DNA of 64,000 nt from Thermoanaerobacter wiegelii Rt8.B1. GTDB lineage: Bacteria > Bacillota > Thermoanaerobacteria > Thermoanaerobacterales > Thermoanaerobacteraceae. A program made the translations under genes and the position numbers. Shown here in pieces: positions 3,621 to 36,887 of this stretch. The stretch covers positions 846,501 through 910,500 of the forward strand of contig NC_015958.1 in NCBI RefSeq assembly GCF_000147695.2, read 5' to 3'. Under the pieces are notes generated by a model. The model did not search any database. It was not told the origin of the DNA and saw only the letters and a program-made list of their open reading frames with translations. The first letter of the stretch is position 1; each line of letters opens with the position of its first letter.

Positions 3621-3908
3621 TAATTCTATGGATTTTTTTATTTTGACAAAAAATCAGCATCTAATATCATGCTTCAGATTGAAGACTACCACTTTTTACA
3701 TATATAAAAAGAGGGAATGTTTTATATTTGGATATAATTATATGTAGTTTATAAATATTTGATAAAAATCATGAAAAGATTAAGATGGAATGAAAAATAT
3801 TTTTGAATTAACCCCTTAATTTTGAATAAAAACTTGCTAATTCATTTTTTTATCATAGACTCCCATGCCGCAAATGCGGCACCAGCAGAGGATGAAAATG
3901 CGCTTTTA

Positions 3909-3917
3909 TGATATAAT
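3909..3917 (+). promoter_or_regulatory. Extended -10 promoter of the IS110 noncoding RNA
   Basis: TGATATAAT is a perfect extended -10 element (TGn plus TATAAT). No good -35 is visible at the proper distance. A start near 3923-3925 would place the 5' end of the transcript on the first stem described for the downstream RNA. In IS110 elements the promoter for the guide RNA lies in this part of the left end. Confidence 0.5.
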
Positions 3918-3923
3918 CAGTAT

Positions 3924-4072
3924 AGCGGCTGGCGAAGGGAGGTCGTTTTTACCTTGGTGCTTCGAGCCCGACTCATAGACAGACCCCAACGACCAGGTGC
4001 ACCACAGATTGTTGCTCCCTTTGCGGGAAGCACGCAGGATAGAATAACCCTTTATGGTTGTTGCACCAGCCC
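3924..4072 (+). ncRNA. Candidate bridge RNA of the IS110 element
   Basis: The roughly 150-base stretch between the promoter and the transposase folds well by eye. GGTCGTT (3941-3947) pairs with AACGACC (3988-3994). GGTGCA (3996-4001) pairs with TGCACC (4062-4067). TGCTCCC (4013-4019) pairs with GGGAAGCA (4025-4032) with one bulge. GGCTGG (3927-3932) can pair with CCAGCC (4066-4071) as an alternative outer stem. IS110-family elements encode a bridge RNA with two internal loops that base-pair to target and donor DNA, of about this size and place. The octamer TCATAGAC inside the first loop (3973-3980) also occurs at 3853-3860, as expected if a loop reads the element end. Confidence 0.6.
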
Positions 4073-4124
4073 TTCAATATTAAAGTCGCTATCGTACAAA
4101 TATTAAAAAGGAGTTGGTTCTTTT

Positions 4125-5335
4125 ATGGATTTAGTTTATTCTCACGTTTGCGGATTAGATGTCCATAAAAAGACCGTCGTGGCGTGTATAATAACACCAT
4201 AAGGTAAAGAAATCCGCACTTTTTCAACCATGACCGATGACCTTATTGCATTAAAAGAGTTTATTAAAACCAAAGGTTGTACTGTTGTTGCTATGGAAAG
4301 CACCGGTTCTTACTGGAAACCTATCTACAACCTGCTGGAGCTTGAGAATCTGAAGATTCTACTTGTCAATGCAAAGCATATTAAGAATGTACCAGGTAGA
4401 AAAACCGATGTTAAAGATGCTGAATGGATAGCAAGTCTTTTGCAATACGGCCTCTTACAAGGCCCGACCGTGAACAAAGGGAGCTTCGCGAACTTGTTCG
4501 TTATAGAAAAAGCCTCATTGAAGAAAAATCAAGAGAGCTTAACCGCATACAAAAGGTTTTAGAAGGAGCTAATATCAAACTGTCTTCTGTTGTCTCTGAC
4601 ATAAACGGTTCATCCAGTCGTTCCATACTTAAGGCTATGATAAATGGTGAAGACAATCCTGAGTCCCTCGCAGAACTTTCTCAGGGTAAGTTAAAAAGTA
4701 AAAAGGAAGAACTAAAGCGTGCTTTAAAAGGGTTGATCAATGATCACCAGAGGATGCTCCTGGAAATACAGCTCAGACATATTGATTACCTCGATGAAGA
4801 AATAGCAAAATTGGATGAAGAAATTAAAAATCGTATGCTCCCTTTTGAAAAAGACCTGGCACTGTTGGATACAATTCCCGGAGTAGGTAGAAGAACTGCA
4901 GAACAGATAATTGCCGAAATCGGCACGAATATGGAGCAGTTCCCATCTGCTGCTCATTTGTGTTCTTGGGCAGGACTGTGTCCAGGTCAAAACCAAAGTG
5001 CTGGTAAGAAAAAGTCTGCCAGGACTCGAAAAGGTAACCAAAAATTGCGAAGCTCTCTTGTAGAAGCTGCCCGGGCCGCCTCTAGAGCAAAAGACACCTA
5101 TCTTTCAAGTCAATACCACCGCATCGCTGCTCGAAGAGGAGCAAACCGAGCAGCAGTTGCAGTGGCACACAGCATCTTAACTATAGTTTATCATATTCTC
5201 AAGCGAAAGCAACCTTATATTGAACTAGGCCCTACTTATTATGAAGAGAAAAGGCGCAACATGGTCATCCGGCAGTCTTTGAAAAAGCTGGAGTCTTTAG
5301 GACTAAAGGTCACGGTTGAAGAAGTAGCGTCGTAA
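4125..5335 (+). pseudogene. IS110-family transposase, inactivated by a stop codon and a frameshift
   Basis: The ATG at 4125 follows AAAAAGGAG. The RuvC-like DEDD domain is recognisable: GLDVHKKTVV (first Asp), ESTGSYWKP (Glu), then TDVKDAEWIA (last Asp pair). The C-terminal Transposase_20 domain has GVGRRTAEQIIAEIG and the serine region SAGKKKSARTRKGN. Two lesions are seen. The first is TAA at codon 26, in line with the downstream frame. The second is a shift near 4460, where GLLQG jumps to PDREQRELREL in another frame and a few expected residues are missing. The fragments are 4230-4562 and 4424-5335. This is genuine decay, not a one-base homopolymer artefact, so the copy cannot move by itself. 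Confidence 0.9.
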
Positions 5336-5871
5336 CTTTTTATATTTATTTATATAGTTATATTTATATAGCTTCATATTTATCCCATATTTTTACATTA
5401 AGTATGGGCTTAGTTTTTTATTGCCTTTTTGAGGATCATTATTTTCAGGATAGTATTATATCTTCAATTTATTATATATTAAAGTTTACTACCTATTTTT
5501 GGCGGTTCCCTCATAACTTTTTGGTAATATTCTTTAAGGTGAAATATAACTATGGCACTATGAATCCTTGCCTGAGCTGGTGCCTTTATTTTTTATGGAA
5601 GATTATCGACAATGAGTATTCATTTAAAATTTTAGGAACTTTTAATTCGTCTTACTTCTCCTGGAATTATAGACGGGAGACAAATTTAAAAGAGGATTTT
5701 TAATAAATTTGTAGAATATGTTTTTGAAATGGTTATTATAGTAGAATTGGAAAGTCGTTAAGGTTAAAAATTGGGGAATTTTTATGCTTACTAAGAATTT
5801 AAGGGTATAATAACATTTATATTATGGATTAGTTAAAGAAAGCAATTTATATTTTTACAGGGGGTCTTGAA
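5336..5871. other. AT-rich gap between IS110 and the McrB remnant
   Basis: An open frame of 99 codons (5404-5703) lacks a ribosome binding site and shows no family features, so I do not call it. TATAAT at about 5810, upstream of the McrB remnant, is a plausible -10 box. Otherwise nothing recognisable is seen. Confidence 0.4.
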
Positions 5872-7530: not shown

Positions 7531-7786
7531 AGCTTGAAAAATAGTAAAGATGTTAGGTGAAGCTAAGTTATTAATATTATCCTCAGGGCTTTGCTGTGTT
7601 ACACATTTTCATTTTTGTCGATATATGTCGAAATATTTTTAATATTTGTATTGGTCTTTAGGAAATAAAATGGTAAAATGAATACAGAATGAAAATTATT
7701 TAGAGACTTAGTAACAGCAATTATAAATTGTTATTCAAAACTTATCATTTATGAGATATAATAATATTAAGAAGGAGCAAAATGTC

Positions 7787-8869
7787 ATGGATGATAAAAA
7801 TGTAAAGGAAGCTATTTACAATCAGCATGACAAAGGGTATAAATTTTTGTTATCCAGTAAGCGAGTGTTTATAGAGTTATTAAGAAGTTTTGTAAAACAT
7901 GAATGGGTAAATGATATAGACGAGGCAAATGTAGTTAAAGTAGATAAGTCATTTGTATTACAAGACTTTGCAGATAAAGAAGCAGACTTAGTTTACAGAG
8001 TAAAATTAAAAGAAAAAGAAGTTATATTTTATATATTGATGGAATTACAATCTACAGTTGACTATCAAATGCCCTACAGATTACTTTTATATATGGTAGA
8101 GATATGGAGAAGCATACTAAAAGACATACCAAAAAAAGAATCAAGAAGGAAAGATTTTAAATTACCAGTTATAGTACCGATAGTATTGTACAACGGAGTC
8201 CGTAAATGGACAGCAAAAACAAGCTACAAAGAAACACTAAATTCCTATGAAACCTTTGGAGAATATACAGTAGATTTCAAATATATACTAGTAGATGTAA
8301 ATAGGTATACAAAAGAAGAATTATTAAAGTTAGAAAACTTAATAGCTTCTGTATTTTTATTAGAACAAAAAGTAGAATTTGAAGAAATAATGAAAAGGCT
8401 TAAGGAATTATCAGAGATATTAAATAACTTGGATAAAGATGAAATATTATTATTTAAAGCATGGTTTAAAAAGATATTACTAGCTAGATTGCCGGAAGAA
8501 GAGCGAGAAAATATAGAGAGGATAATAGATGAAAACAAGGAGGTGAAAATAATGATATCAAATCTTGAAAAAACCATATTGCAAGAGATGAAAGAGCGCG
8601 AGAAAAGGGGTATTGAAAAAGGGATAAAAAAAGGTATAGAAAAAGGAATAGAAAAAGGAATAGAAAAAGGAATAGAAAAAGGAATAGAAAAAGGCATGGA
8701 GAGGGGAATAGGAGTAACTGTTATTAAGTTATTAGAGAAGAAATTTGGAAATGTTCCTGAAGAATATGTAAAGAAAATAGATGGTGCAAACAGAGAAACA
8801 TTGATGGCTATTGTTGATAATATATTTGAGATAGATAAAATAGAGGATTTAGATAAGTTCTTGAAATAA
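7787..8869 (+). CDS. Rpn/PD-(D/E)xK family recombination-promoting nuclease (putative transposase)
   Basis: The start is ATG 7787, behind GAAGGAG; an upstream in-frame ATG at 7751 has no binding site. The product (360 residues) opens with HDKGYKFLLSSKRVF, typical of the Rpn/Transposase_31 family. The nuclease core shows DFADKEADLVYRV and the FYILMELQSTVDYQMPYRLL motif with the catalytic E-x-Q variation, then LPVIVPIVLYNG. Such proteins cut DNA and promote RecA-independent recombination in E. coli. Residues about 270-310 are a run of KGIE repeats encoded by a 12-base tandem repeat. A 40-base piece of this gene is duplicated at 12878-12917. Confidence 0.85.
   Translation: MDDKNVKEAIYNQHDKGYKFLLSSKRVFIELLRSFVKHEWVNDIDEANVVKVDKSFVLQDFADKEADLVYRVKLKEKEVIFYILMELQSTVDYQMPYRLLLYMVEIWRSILKDIPKKESRRKDFKLPVIVPIVLYNGVRKWTAKTSYKETLNSYETFGEYTVDFKYILVDVNRYTKEELLKLENLIASVFLLEQKVEFEEIMKRLKELSEILNNLDKDEILLFKAWFKKILLARLPEEERENIERIIDENKEVKIMISNLEKTILQEMKEREKRGIEKGIKKGIEKGIEKGIEKGIEKGIEKGMERGIGVTVIKLLEKKFGNVPEEYVKKIDGANRETLMAIVDNIFEIDKIEDLDKFLK
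8608..8712 (+). repeat. 12-base tandem repeat encoding KGIE units
   Basis: About eight copies of a 12-base unit close to GAAAAAGGAATA lie in frame in the Rpn gene. The central five are perfect; the outer ones carry substitutions that give KRGIE, KGIK and KGME. Twelve-base units keep the frame, so copy number can change without breaking the gene. A linker of this kind is common in the Rpn family. Confidence 0.9.
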
Positions 8870-9168: not shown

Positions 9169-9750
9169 ATGCAAATAATTTTTCATGTTGATAACATTGA
9201 AGAATATTTGCAAAAAAGTAAAGATTACAATTTCCCTGACCCACCAGATAGATGCCCTCATCCTGACTGCAAATGTAGAGTAAAACTAAAAAAGCACGGT
9301 TTTTACTACCGTTACTATTTAGATGGAACCATCTGCACAAAAATAGCCATAAGAAGATATATATGCCCTGTGTGCAAAAGGACTCTTTCCTACCTCCCTG
9401 ATTTCTGTATTCCTCATTTTCAGTATTCTTCCAATATGATTGTAAAGTCTTTAAAAGAGACACTTACAAGAGAAAAAACTCTCAGTTCTTTCATAAATGA
9501 CTTAAAAAGAAACTTCCCTACCATACTATTTTCAAGACAGCATATATATTTTTACACCAAAAGGATAATGAATAATTTAAGTTTTATCATATATGGATTA
9601 AGGCAAATAGACCCTTACATAAAGTTATTCGAGGTTAGTTCTCAAAGAGAGAGGGCCAGAGAGATTTTGGACATAATAAACATTGTACCACTCTTTTCCC
9701 AACGGTTTTATGCCCATTGCCAAAAATCATTTCTGGCCCCTCTCACATAA
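9169..9750 (+). CDS. DUF6431-type zinc-ribbon protein of the transposon
   Basis: ATG 9169 follows TTGGAGATG. Residues about 25-70 hold a paired Cys motif: CPHPDCKC, then YICPVCKRTLSYLPDF, a zinc ribbon of the type found in DUF6431 proteins that accompany rve transposases. The rest is helical with QYSSNMIVKSLKETL. It probably binds DNA or helps the transposase; no catalytic residues are apparent. The stop codon sits inside the 9743-9762 repeat, so the natural C-terminus may have been altered. Confidence 0.65.
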   Translation: MQIIFHVDNIEEYLQKSKDYNFPDPPDRCPHPDCKCRVKLKKHGFYYRYYLDGTICTKIAIRRYICPVCKRTLSYLPDFCIPHFQYSSNMIVKSLKETLTREKTLSSFINDLKRNFPTILFSRQHIYFYTKRIMNNLSFIIYGLRQIDPYIKLFEVSSQRERAREILDIINIVPLFSQRFYAHCQKSFLAPLT

Positions 9751-9762
9751 TTTTAGCATTAA
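9743..9762 (+). repeat. Third copy of the 20-base hairpin-arm sequence
   Basis: Matches 9125-9144 at 18 of 20 bases and is inverted relative to 9095-9114. The DUF6431-type gene is thus bracketed by inverted copies, about 650 bases apart. Confidence 0.7.
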
Positions 9763-9886
9763 ACATGAAAGATTTAAATAAAAATTTTGATTTTTTCTTA
9801 GCAACATAGCTTTTTCCTTTAATGTCCCCCAGATATGAGCTAAAATTACGATTAAGAAATCAAAAAAGTGAAGGGGGAACATATAA

Positions 9887-10813
9887 ATGCTTGATGAAAA
9901 AGCGAGAGAAGCTATAGCATTAAAGAGATTTTCACTGATAAGTCCGGTGTTAAACGGACAGGTAAAAAATCAGAAAGAATATTTTGATGCTCTTTCCGAT
10001 AAACCTATTGAGATACCTTATCTTGGAATGAGAAGATATACTCCTAAGACACTTAGAGGGTGGCTGTATCAGTATTTAAGAGGTGGTATAGAAGCGTTAA
10101 AGCCGGGTTATCGAAGTGACAGAGGCAAATACAGAAAGATAGACTTTGAACTTTCAGAGAGAATAAAGCAAAAGAAGCTTGAACATCCTGAAATGCCCAA
10201 CAAACTTCTTTATGAGACATTGATAGGAGAAGGAATAATATCACCGGATAAAGTATCCCTTTCGACATTCTATAGGTTTTTGAAAAACATTCCTGTAAAA
10301 TCTCTAGATAAAGAAAAAGAGGGTAAAACAAAGAGGTTTTCCCATGAATACATCAATGAACTGTGGCAAACTGATGTCATGTATGGGCCATATATTAAAG
10401 AAGGTAAAACAAAAAGACAAACGTACCTTATTGCATATATAGATGATGCTTCAAGGCTTTGTACCTATGCTCGCTTTTACTATACCCAGAATTTTTTAGC
10501 TTTAAGAGACTCATTTAAAGAGGCGGTGCTAAGAAGGGGGATACCCAAAATGCTTTACACTGACAACGGAAAGATATATAGAAGCACTCAATTGGAATAT
10601 ATCTGTGCTTCACTAGGCACATCTCTTATTCACGCTGAGCCTTTTTCACCTCATTCAAAAGGAAAAATAGAAAGATTCTTTCATACGGTGAGAATGAGAT
10701 TCTTAAGCACAATAGATCCTACCTCCGTAAAGAGTATAGATGAACTCAACATGATGTTTTTAAATGGCTGGAGGAAGATTACAACAGAAAAGAACACAGC
10801 AGTATTGGCATGA
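9887..10813 (+). CDS. rve-type DDE transposase, N-terminal and catalytic part (frame A)
   Basis: ATG 9887 follows GAAGGGGGAAC. The N-terminal 110 residues form helix-turn-helix DNA-binding units (GWLYQYLRGGIEALKPGYRS). The integrase core follows with the DDE triad: LWQTDVMYGPYI (first Asp), LYTDNGKIYRS (second Asp), and HSKGKIERFFHTVR (Glu). The frame then runs ITTEKNTAVLA and stops, whereas the expected continuation WLEEDYNRKEHSSIG is in the -1 frame. At the crossing point (10759-10765) the sequence is T TTA AAT in frame, a possible slippery site; a lost base is the alternative. So the catalytic part is intact and only the C-terminal domain is shifted. Confidence 0.85.
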   Translation: MLDEKAREAIALKRFSLISPVLNGQVKNQKEYFDALSDKPIEIPYLGMRRYTPKTLRGWLYQYLRGGIEALKPGYRSDRGKYRKIDFELSERIKQKKLEHPEMPNKLLYETLIGEGIISPDKVSLSTFYRFLKNIPVKSLDKEKEGKTKRFSHEYINELWQTDVMYGPYIKEGKTKRQTYLIAYIDDASRLCTYARFYYTQNFLALRDSFKEAVLRRGIPKMLYTDNGKIYRSTQLEYICASLGTSLIHAEPFSPHSKGKIERFFHTVRMRFLSTIDPTSVKSIDELNMMFLNGWRKITTEKNTAVLA

Positions 10814-11199
10814 GTCCTTTAGATTTTTTCATGTCACAAATATCAAGAATAAATATGTGTAACATAGATATGTTGAATGAATGTTTTCTCATAAGAGTAA
10901 ATCGTAAGGTAAATAAGGATGCTACACTTAAAGTGGAAAATATACTTTATGAAACAGAAGAAAAGTTTAAAAATATGCACTTAGAAGTCAGATATGACCC
11001 TGAGTGGCTTAAGGATAATACACCGCTTCTACTTTATTATGAGGGCAAAAAAGTGGGGGAAGCGTATAAAGTGAACTTTCATGAGAATGCTAAAATTCCT
11101 GCTGCGTATATAAAAGGCAAAAATGACGTAAACGAAAATGAAGAAATAAGTGATTTTACCAAGCATAAAGTAATCTCTTTTAACGATATCATTGATTGA
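10810..11199 (+). CDS. rve-type transposase, C-terminal Mu-like domain (frame B)
   Basis: This frame continues the transposase: coding similarity starts at TGG 10765, before the ATG 10810, with WLEEDYNRKEHSSIGMSPLD. It ends in a beta-barrel-like C-terminal domain (EVRYDPEWLKDNTPLLLYYE) of the Mu transposase C-terminal type, which helps bind the transposon ends. It overlaps frame A by four bases (ATGA), so re-initiation could also yield a separate small protein. It overlaps the ATPase gene start region. Confidence 0.8.
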   Translation: MSPLDFFMSQISRINMCNIDMLNECFLIRVNRKVNKDATLKVENILYETEEKFKNMHLEVRYDPEWLKDNTPLLLYYEGKKVGEAYKVNFHENAKIPAAYIKGKNDVNENEEISDFTKHKVISFNDIID

Positions 11200-11216
11200 A
11201 AGAGAGGTGCCTTAAA

Positions 11217-12017
11217 GTGTTTACCCAATATTTTGGAATGAAATTTAATCCATTTTCTAAAGAGATAAGTGTAAACGACCTTTACATAAGTGAAGACATT
11301 GCTGAATTAAATGCCAGGTTAAAATATTTACAAGAAACAAGGGGTATAGGACTTATCGTTGGGGAGGCCGGTTCAGGTAAATCTACTGCATTAAGAAGAT
11401 ATGCTGAAAGCCTCAACCGTTCTACATTTAAACCATGTTATTTCGCTTTATCTACACTTACAGTGAGAGAATTCTATCAAGCATTGGCTATGATTTTAGG
11501 CGAAACACCCTCATACAAAAAAGTAACGCTCTTTTACCAGATACAAAGAGCGATAACAGAACTTTACTATAGCCAGAAAATAACTCCTGTCATAATATTA
11601 GATGAAATACAACTGGTTTCTAATGATGTTCTTGAAGATTTGAGAATAATATTTAACTTTAATATGGATTCTCAAAACCCGTATATATTGATACTTTCAG
11701 GACAACCACACATAAGAAACAAACTAGCTCTCAATGTAAACAGTGCACTAAGGCAAAGAATTTCTATAAAGTATGTGATGCAAGGGCTAAAAAAAGAAGA
11801 AATTCAAGATTATATAAAAACAAGAATGAAAATAGCCGGAATGATGGATGATATATTTACACCATCAGCATATGAAGCAATATATTCCCTAACAAAAGGG
11901 CTCCCAAGGATAATAAATAACCTGGTAACAGCTTCTTTACTCTATGCGTATTCTAAAAGGCTAAGAGAAATAGACGAAGAAGTAATATACCAGGCACAAA
12001 ATGAAATCAGTTTATGA
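11217..12017 (+). CDS. ExeA/TniB-like AAA ATPase of the transposon
   Basis: GTG 11217 sits seven bases after GAGAGGTG; the upstream TTG at 11196 is less well placed. The 266-residue product starts FTQYFGMKFNPFSKEI, the usual ExeA-family opening, followed by Walker A GEAGSGKST, Walker B VIILDEIQ, a sensor in LILSGQPHIRNKL, and the arginine-rich sensor 2 region GLPRIINNL. In Tn7/Tn5053/Mu relatives this ATPase selects target DNA and activates the DDE transposase. It is intact and directly downstream of the split transposase. Confidence 0.9.
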   Translation: MFTQYFGMKFNPFSKEISVNDLYISEDIAELNARLKYLQETRGIGLIVGEAGSGKSTALRRYAESLNRSTFKPCYFALSTLTVREFYQALAMILGETPSYKKVTLFYQIQRAITELYYSQKITPVIILDEIQLVSNDVLEDLRIIFNFNMDSQNPYILILSGQPHIRNKLALNVNSALRQRISIKYVMQGLKKEEIQDYIKTRMKIAGMMDDIFTPSAYEAIYSLTKGLPRIINNLVTASLLYAYSKRLREIDEEVIYQAQNEISL

Positions 12018-36669: not shown

Positions 36670-36887
36670 TTAATAGCATAAATAGAGGAGCGGGCAAGCA
36701 GGTACCTACAGGGTGTTAAGGAGAAGAACCTCCAATACTTGTGGCGAAGGTTTGTCTGCCGAAAGGGTATACTTGTTCTTGAGTATATCCTTGGGGGTGA
36801 GAACAAAACTCATCACTGTCATGGGTGAGGGCCCATGGAGCGCTATTTATGCAGTGAAAAGATTTTCATTGCATAAATAGCGCTTTT
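36670..36887 (+). promoter_or_regulatory. Lysine riboswitch (L box) with terminator, predicted ON switch
   Basis: The L-box core is recognisable: AGAGGAGCG after the 5' P1 strand, CTGCCGAAAGGGTATAC, CCTTGGGGGTGAGAAC, ACTGTCATGGG and CCCATGGAGCGC. P1 is GCATAAATAG (36676-36685) with CTATTTATGC (36843-36852). The same 36843-36852 strand is the 5' arm of a long terminator hairpin whose 3' arm is GCATAAATAGCGC (36871-36883), followed by TTTT. P1 and terminator therefore exclude each other: a lysine-stabilised P1 should allow read-through. The downstream genes degrade lysine, which fits activation by substrate. The aptamer call is from the family consensus; the ON logic is inferred from pairing. 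Confidence 0.88.

What the first reader, a model, noticed from the sequence alone, without database searches (positions are those of the whole stretch)
3850..4124. Intact-looking bridge RNA module in front of a dead IS110 transposase
The noncoding left end has an extended -10 promoter, at least three perfect or near-perfect stems and two large loops in about 150 bases, matching the plan of IS110 bridge RNAs. The octamer TCATAGAC in the first loop (3973-3980) also occurs at 3853-3860, near the presumed element end, as expected for a guide reading its own donor. The transposase has a stop and a frameshift. The module might be mobilised or reprogrammed in trans by an intact relative.
Basis: partly seen in the sequence, partly recalled or inferred. 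Interest (0 to 1): 0.75.

Follow-up and report, generated by a model that had tools for sequence, protein, structure and literature searches.

The report
Bridge-RNA element aimed at CRISPR repeats
The stretch encodes the guide RNA of a now-broken jumping gene whose intact sister copies, by all sequence evidence, use that RNA to land at one exact point inside the repeats of the host's CRISPR immune memory arrays.

Summary
The fold is supported by 40 relatives: 97.6% of pair positions paired, 13 compensated pairs, 0/500 shuffles. The octamer was misread. TCATAG is the target guide matching the left target flank, and AC is the element's first two bases. The donor guide is CAGGATAG (4035-4042) in the second loop, matching the right end. 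Both loops covary with flanks and ends across Bacillota; the target guides also pass on held-out genomes, while the held-out donor test was too small (n=4).

The main finding lies outside the coordinates. In this genus 17 of 23 insertions sit at one exact point in the CRISPR repeat (GTTTCAATTCCTTATAG^GTAGGCTAAAAAC), always in one orientation. The guide reads CT[C/T]ATAG-GTA; about 80% of such sites in the genome are CRISPR repeats. The same insertion point recurs in at least two other families. The window copy is an off-array, decayed insertion.

IS110 copies inside Thermoanaerobacter CRISPR repeats were reported in 2016 without mechanism; I found no paper linking them to a bridge RNA. Guide order is IS1111-like although the RNA is in the left end. 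No RNA or transposition was measured.

The parts
3859..5453 (+). IS110-type element, decayed copy, about 1595 bp including one copy of the AG core
   Evidence: Ends set by alignment to three full copies in the genome
3853..3858 (+).
   Evidence: Flank differs between copies while 3859 onward is conserved; matches target guide 3973-3978
3866..3881 (+). Left-end hairpin TGCCGC-AAAT-GCGGCA, followed by a conserved CAGA..GGATGAAAAT box; role unknown (possible 5' stem-loop or recombinase site)
   Evidence: Present in nearly all relatives
3909..3917 (+). Extended -10 TGATATAAT, presumed promoter of the RNA
   Evidence: Direct sequence; similar -10 in many relatives but not all
3924..4080 (+). Bridge RNA (presumed limits)
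   Evidence: Covariance model R1 and pair counts; 166.7 bits for this copy, which is in the model's seed
3946..3954 (+). Right target guide UUUUUACCU, 5' side of the target loop; complementary to AGGTA of the CRISPR repeat
   Evidence: Covaries with right flank, 0/5000 shuffles, 6/5000 in held-out genomes
3971..3978 (+). Left target guide ACUCAUAG, 3' side of the target loop; like CCTTATAG of the CRISPR repeat
   Evidence: Covaries with left flank, 0/5000 and 0/5000 held out
4035..4042 (+). Donor guide CAGGAUAG, 3' side of the donor loop; identical to the right element end
   Evidence: Covaries with the right end, 0/5000; held-out sample too small to tell (n=4)
4125..5335 (+). Transposase pseudogene (DEDD_Tnp_IS110 and Transposase_20), TAA at 4200-4202 and frameshift near 4465
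5442..5453 (+). Right end TTTTCAGGATAG, core AG at 5452-5453
   Evidence: Conserved up to here in all copies

Best explanation
The region is the left end of a decayed IS110-type element and encodes its bridge RNA. In intact sister copies the RNA is inferred to be bound by the DEDD transposase. The first loop pairs with a target of the form CT[C/T]ATAG-GTA and the second loop with the element's joined ends; recombination occurs at a shared AG core (CT on the other strand). The commonest such target in these genomes is the CRISPR repeat, so the element uses CRISPR arrays as a multi-copy landing pad and splits them. The window copy landed off-array at TATCATAG^TATTAT, matching mainly the left guide, and then lost its transposase. 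Shown: fold conservation, guide-target and guide-donor covariation, insertion at one point of the repeat in one orientation. Inferred: RNA expression, transposase binding, recombination chemistry.
For: Three full copies in the same genome, two with intact transposase, two inside CRISPR repeats. 17 of 23 genus insertions in the repeat (my count), the repeats being about 0.14% of the genome (binomial 2e-44, which ignores relatedness of copies). CTNATAGGTA occurs 156 times in the genome, 127 of them CRISPR repeats, 25 for the reversed control. Guide covariation in two sets for the target guides. Same insertion point in CRISPR repeats of G073 and G105, genomes of two other families. The intact transposase matches IS621 transposase (8wt6, E 1.8e-14), with the catalytic residues named for IS621 aligned.
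Against: The left guide CUCAUAG has one mismatch to this genome's repeat CTTATAG (perfect to the CTCATAG repeats of G105 and some G182 arrays). G105 copies hit the repeat with a poorly matching left guide and a good right guide. No RNA was measured. The donor guide for the left end was not found. The held-out donor test was uninformative.
Confidence: 0.87

Rival explanations
1. The bridge RNA is real, but the CRISPR-array enrichment comes from survival: insertions elsewhere are lost, and arrays tolerate insertions or copy them by recombination between repeats.
For: Insertions are biased to the leader-distal end (mean position 0.23, 12 insertions, p about 4e-4), where harm may be least; arrays recombine.
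Against: Insertion is always at one base position in one orientation, with different neighbouring spacers; off-array copies of the family also match the guide.
Confidence: 0.08
2. The conserved left-end fold is a transposase-binding or regulatory structure and the guide matches reflect DNA sequence recognition by the protein.
For: Left end also carries a conserved hairpin and box upstream of the RNA.
Against: Guide loops change together with flanks between relatives with similar transposases (e.g. Neobacillus CCGTTAG versus CCTATAG; target-guide shuffles); compensated stems fit an RNA.
Confidence: 0.03
3. The window module is functional in trans today, guided by its own RNA with transposase from the intact copies (compatible with the best explanation).
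For: Ends, promoter and RNA are well kept; intact copies exist in the same genome; three target-loop-deleted copies with one shared deletion at three sites in two species suggest movement without own RNA.
Against: No copy of this exact dead gene elsewhere in the genome; gene conversion can spread a deletion.
Confidence: 0.2

Closest known systems
IS621 bridge RNA system (PMC11208160, PMC11208158)
   Same: DEDD transposase with a non-coding RNA in the left end, two loops, one reading target and one reading donor, core dinucleotide (CT) shared by both
   Different: In IS621 the left guides are on the 5' side of each loop (LTG 50-58, RTG 77-80); here the order is reversed in both loops relative to the element, and the core reads AG on the element strand. 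IS621 targets REP sequences (title of the Choi et al. 2003 reference cited in PMC11208158), this one CRISPR repeats
IS1111-type seekRNA elements (PMC11187229)
   Same: Order of the two target-matching segments in the RNA
   Different: IS1111 carries the non-coding region downstream and has subterminal inverted repeats; here it is upstream and no inverted repeat over 6 bp was found
IS110 copies in CRISPR direct repeats of Thermoanaerobacter (PMC4852346, 2016)
   Same: Same genus, IS110 copies splitting CRISPR arrays; an ATAG duplication noted for an IS in T. italicus
   Different: That report gives no targeting mechanism; ATAG here is explained as the core plus matching neighbours present in both target and right end

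Membership tests
IS110 family | DEDD_Tnp_IS110 and Transposase_20 domains | tested here: met
   intact copy matches NF033542 IS110 family RNA-guided transposase, 301 bits against cut-off 140
IS110 family | Catalytic D, E, D, D and S of IS621 in intact copies | tested here: met
   Pairwise alignment to 8wt6; the gene is broken in the window copy
IS110 group (left-end RNA) | Non-coding RNA upstream of the transposase, no long subterminal inverted repeats | tested here: met
IS110 group (IS621/ISEc21 type) | Bottom-strand (left) guide 5' of top-strand (right) guide | tested here: not met
   Order is reversed by covariation; published order from PMC11208158 and PMC11187229
IS1111 group | Downstream RNA and 7-17 bp subterminal inverted repeats | tested here: not met
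Bridge RNA | Two loops matching target and donor | tested here: met
   Loop 1 to flanks and loop 2 to right end covary; target guides confirmed in held-out genomes; guide for the left end not identified
Bridge RNA | RNA is made and bound by the transposase | not testable with these tools
   Needs RNA-seq and co-purification

The most novel reading that the evidence does not exclude
A lineage of RNA-guided transposons in several families of Bacillota has specialised on the conserved core of a CRISPR repeat, so that a guide RNA parasitises the host's guide-RNA memory; guide variants CTTATAG and CTCATAG mirror the two natural repeat variants, and the arrays keep growing after insertion.
Probability: 0.35. 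Interest if true: 0.8.

Novelty: new variant of a known kind. Interest (0 to 1): 0.62.

Why it matters
It gives a mechanism for a pattern noted in 2016 (IS110 copies splitting CRISPR arrays), shows a natural bridge RNA whose target is another RNA-guided system, and supplies a large set of natural guide-target pairs plus a guide order not described, in the text I read, for left-end RNAs in the founding papers. It makes testable whether mobile elements use CRISPR arrays as landing pads.

Tried and rejected
Rfam at gathering and at E up to 1: nothing. Single-sequence fold: not significant. An alternative stem GGTCGTT/AACGACC closing loop 1: no covariation beyond shuffles, rejected for the long-range stem. 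Target guides on the opposite sides of the loop: 3' guide to right flank no better than shuffles; 5' guide to left flank slightly raised (4/5000, in a set not collapsed to distinct guides). Empty site for the window copy in nine genus genomes: no syntenic site found. Spacers matching the element: only short chance-level matches in the output I saw, which was cut. Donor guide in held-out genomes: only 4 usable, inconclusive.

Full report
Observation. The element was delimited by comparison with three full copies in the same genome (G000 has 2,785,056 bases in one contig): it runs from 3859 to 5453, flanked by an AG core at 3857-3858 and 5452-5453. The transposase gene starts at 4125 and is broken by a TAA at 4200-4202 and a frameshift near 4465. 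Two of the three sister copies have an open transposase of 429-430 codons. The genus is Thermoanaerobacter: a same-genus genome (G004) shares its contig length with NZ_AVAF01000164.1, Thermoanaerobacter sp. A7A.

RNA. Forty left ends from relatives (58-96% transposase identity, mostly Bacillota) align over the whole stretch. The consensus fold has 36 pairs, 13 with compensatory changes, 97.6% of cells paired, and no shuffle of 500 reaches any measure. An alternative closing stem shows no covariation beyond shuffles. A covariance model of the RNA hits 50 of 398 sampled genomes of the phylum.

Guides. In loop 1, the 3' side is identical to the left flank up to the AG core and the 5' side is complementary to the right flank. 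In loop 2, the 3' side is identical to the right element end. Using one pair per distinct guide, left guide against left flank matches 4.74 of 6 bases (shuffled 2.25), right guide 3.32 of 6 (shuffled 2.24), donor guide 5.53 of 7 (shuffled 3.89); none of 5000 shuffles reaches these. In genomes not used before, left guide 3.03 against 1.85 (0/5000) and right guide 2.90 against 2.24 (6/5000); the donor guide had only 4 cases and is inconclusive. Ends were located by patterns that do not use the guides. The order right guide then left guide, 5' to 3', is the reverse of IS621 (PMC11208158) and ISEc21 and like IS1111 (PMC11187229), yet the RNA is upstream and there is no long subterminal inverted repeat. 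I read the text of those papers, not their figures.

Target. Sister copies sit inside GTTTCAATTCCTTATAGGTAGGCTAAAAAC at the same point and in the same orientation. G000 has 127 matches of the repeat core and G003 has 188, where at least seven copies lie in one array region. Counting insertions in the genus by distinct flanks, 17 are in the repeat and 6 are not (my count). CTNATAGGTA occurs 156 times in G000, 127 of them repeats, against 25 for the reversed control. Six genomes have both the repeat and this element; of the four without this guide type, three lack the repeat and one has three repeat matches. In held-out genomes G073 and G105 the same RNA family is again in CRISPR repeats at the same point, and repeats of this core are abundant there. 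G105 copies match the repeat mainly with the right guide.

Window copy. Its left flank TATCATAG shares TCATAG with the left guide; the right flank agrees poorly, so it is best read as an off-target insertion. No empty site was found in the genus.

Array context. The side of the arrays with AAAAAC is the leader: up to 400 bp beyond it are homologous between arrays. Insertions lie nearer the distal end (mean 0.23), which fits ageing of arrays that grow at the leader, or selection. The crRNA strand would then run against the transposase gene; this step rests on general knowledge of repeats ending in ATTGAAAC.

Prior knowledge. PMC4852346 (2016) reports IS110 copies splitting CRISPR arrays of four Thermoanaerobacter genomes and an ATAG duplication for an IS in T. 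italicus, without mechanism. Seven searches of the held library found no paper that links a bridge RNA or seekRNA to CRISPR repeats; most subscription papers and bioRxiv preprints are not held.

Limits. Relatedness of copies inflates the binomial figure. Guide matches are sequence evidence. No expression, binding or movement was measured.

Noticed in passing
L168:7840-7970 (G000:C1 about 1497840-1497970): A truncated element end plus half repeat is followed by a spacer-length stretch and a second copy of the hybrid ACTATTTTCAGGATAGGTAGGCTAAAAAC (29 identical bases, period 67), as if CRISPR adaptation had duplicated an element-repeat hybrid; the sequence beyond is not the leader.
   Followed up: partly
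L049, L045/L055, L050: Three copies at different sites in two species share one deletion junction (GATGAAAATACCATCCCCTTTACGGG) that removes promoter and target loop but keeps the donor guide; possible trans mobilisation or gene conversion.
   Followed up: partly
L170, L171 (G003): At least seven element copies, most with identical intact transposases, interrupt one CRISPR array region of about 167 repeats.
   Followed up: partly
window 3670-3785: About 110 bp repeat sequence (75-81% identical) just upstream of the element, also in five other genomes of the genus; MITE-like.
   Followed up: no
window 36675-36853: Lysine riboswitch (RF00168, 83.9 bits).
   Followed up: no
window 9169-12017: Gene row of a zinc-ribbon-like ORF, an integrase-like ORF, a small ORF and an ExeA-like ATPase ORF, by eye a multi-gene transposition unit.
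   Followed up: no
window 7751-8869: ORF with a long KGIE tandem repeat near its C-terminus, resembling Rpn/PD-(D/E)XK family proteins by eye.
   Followed up: no
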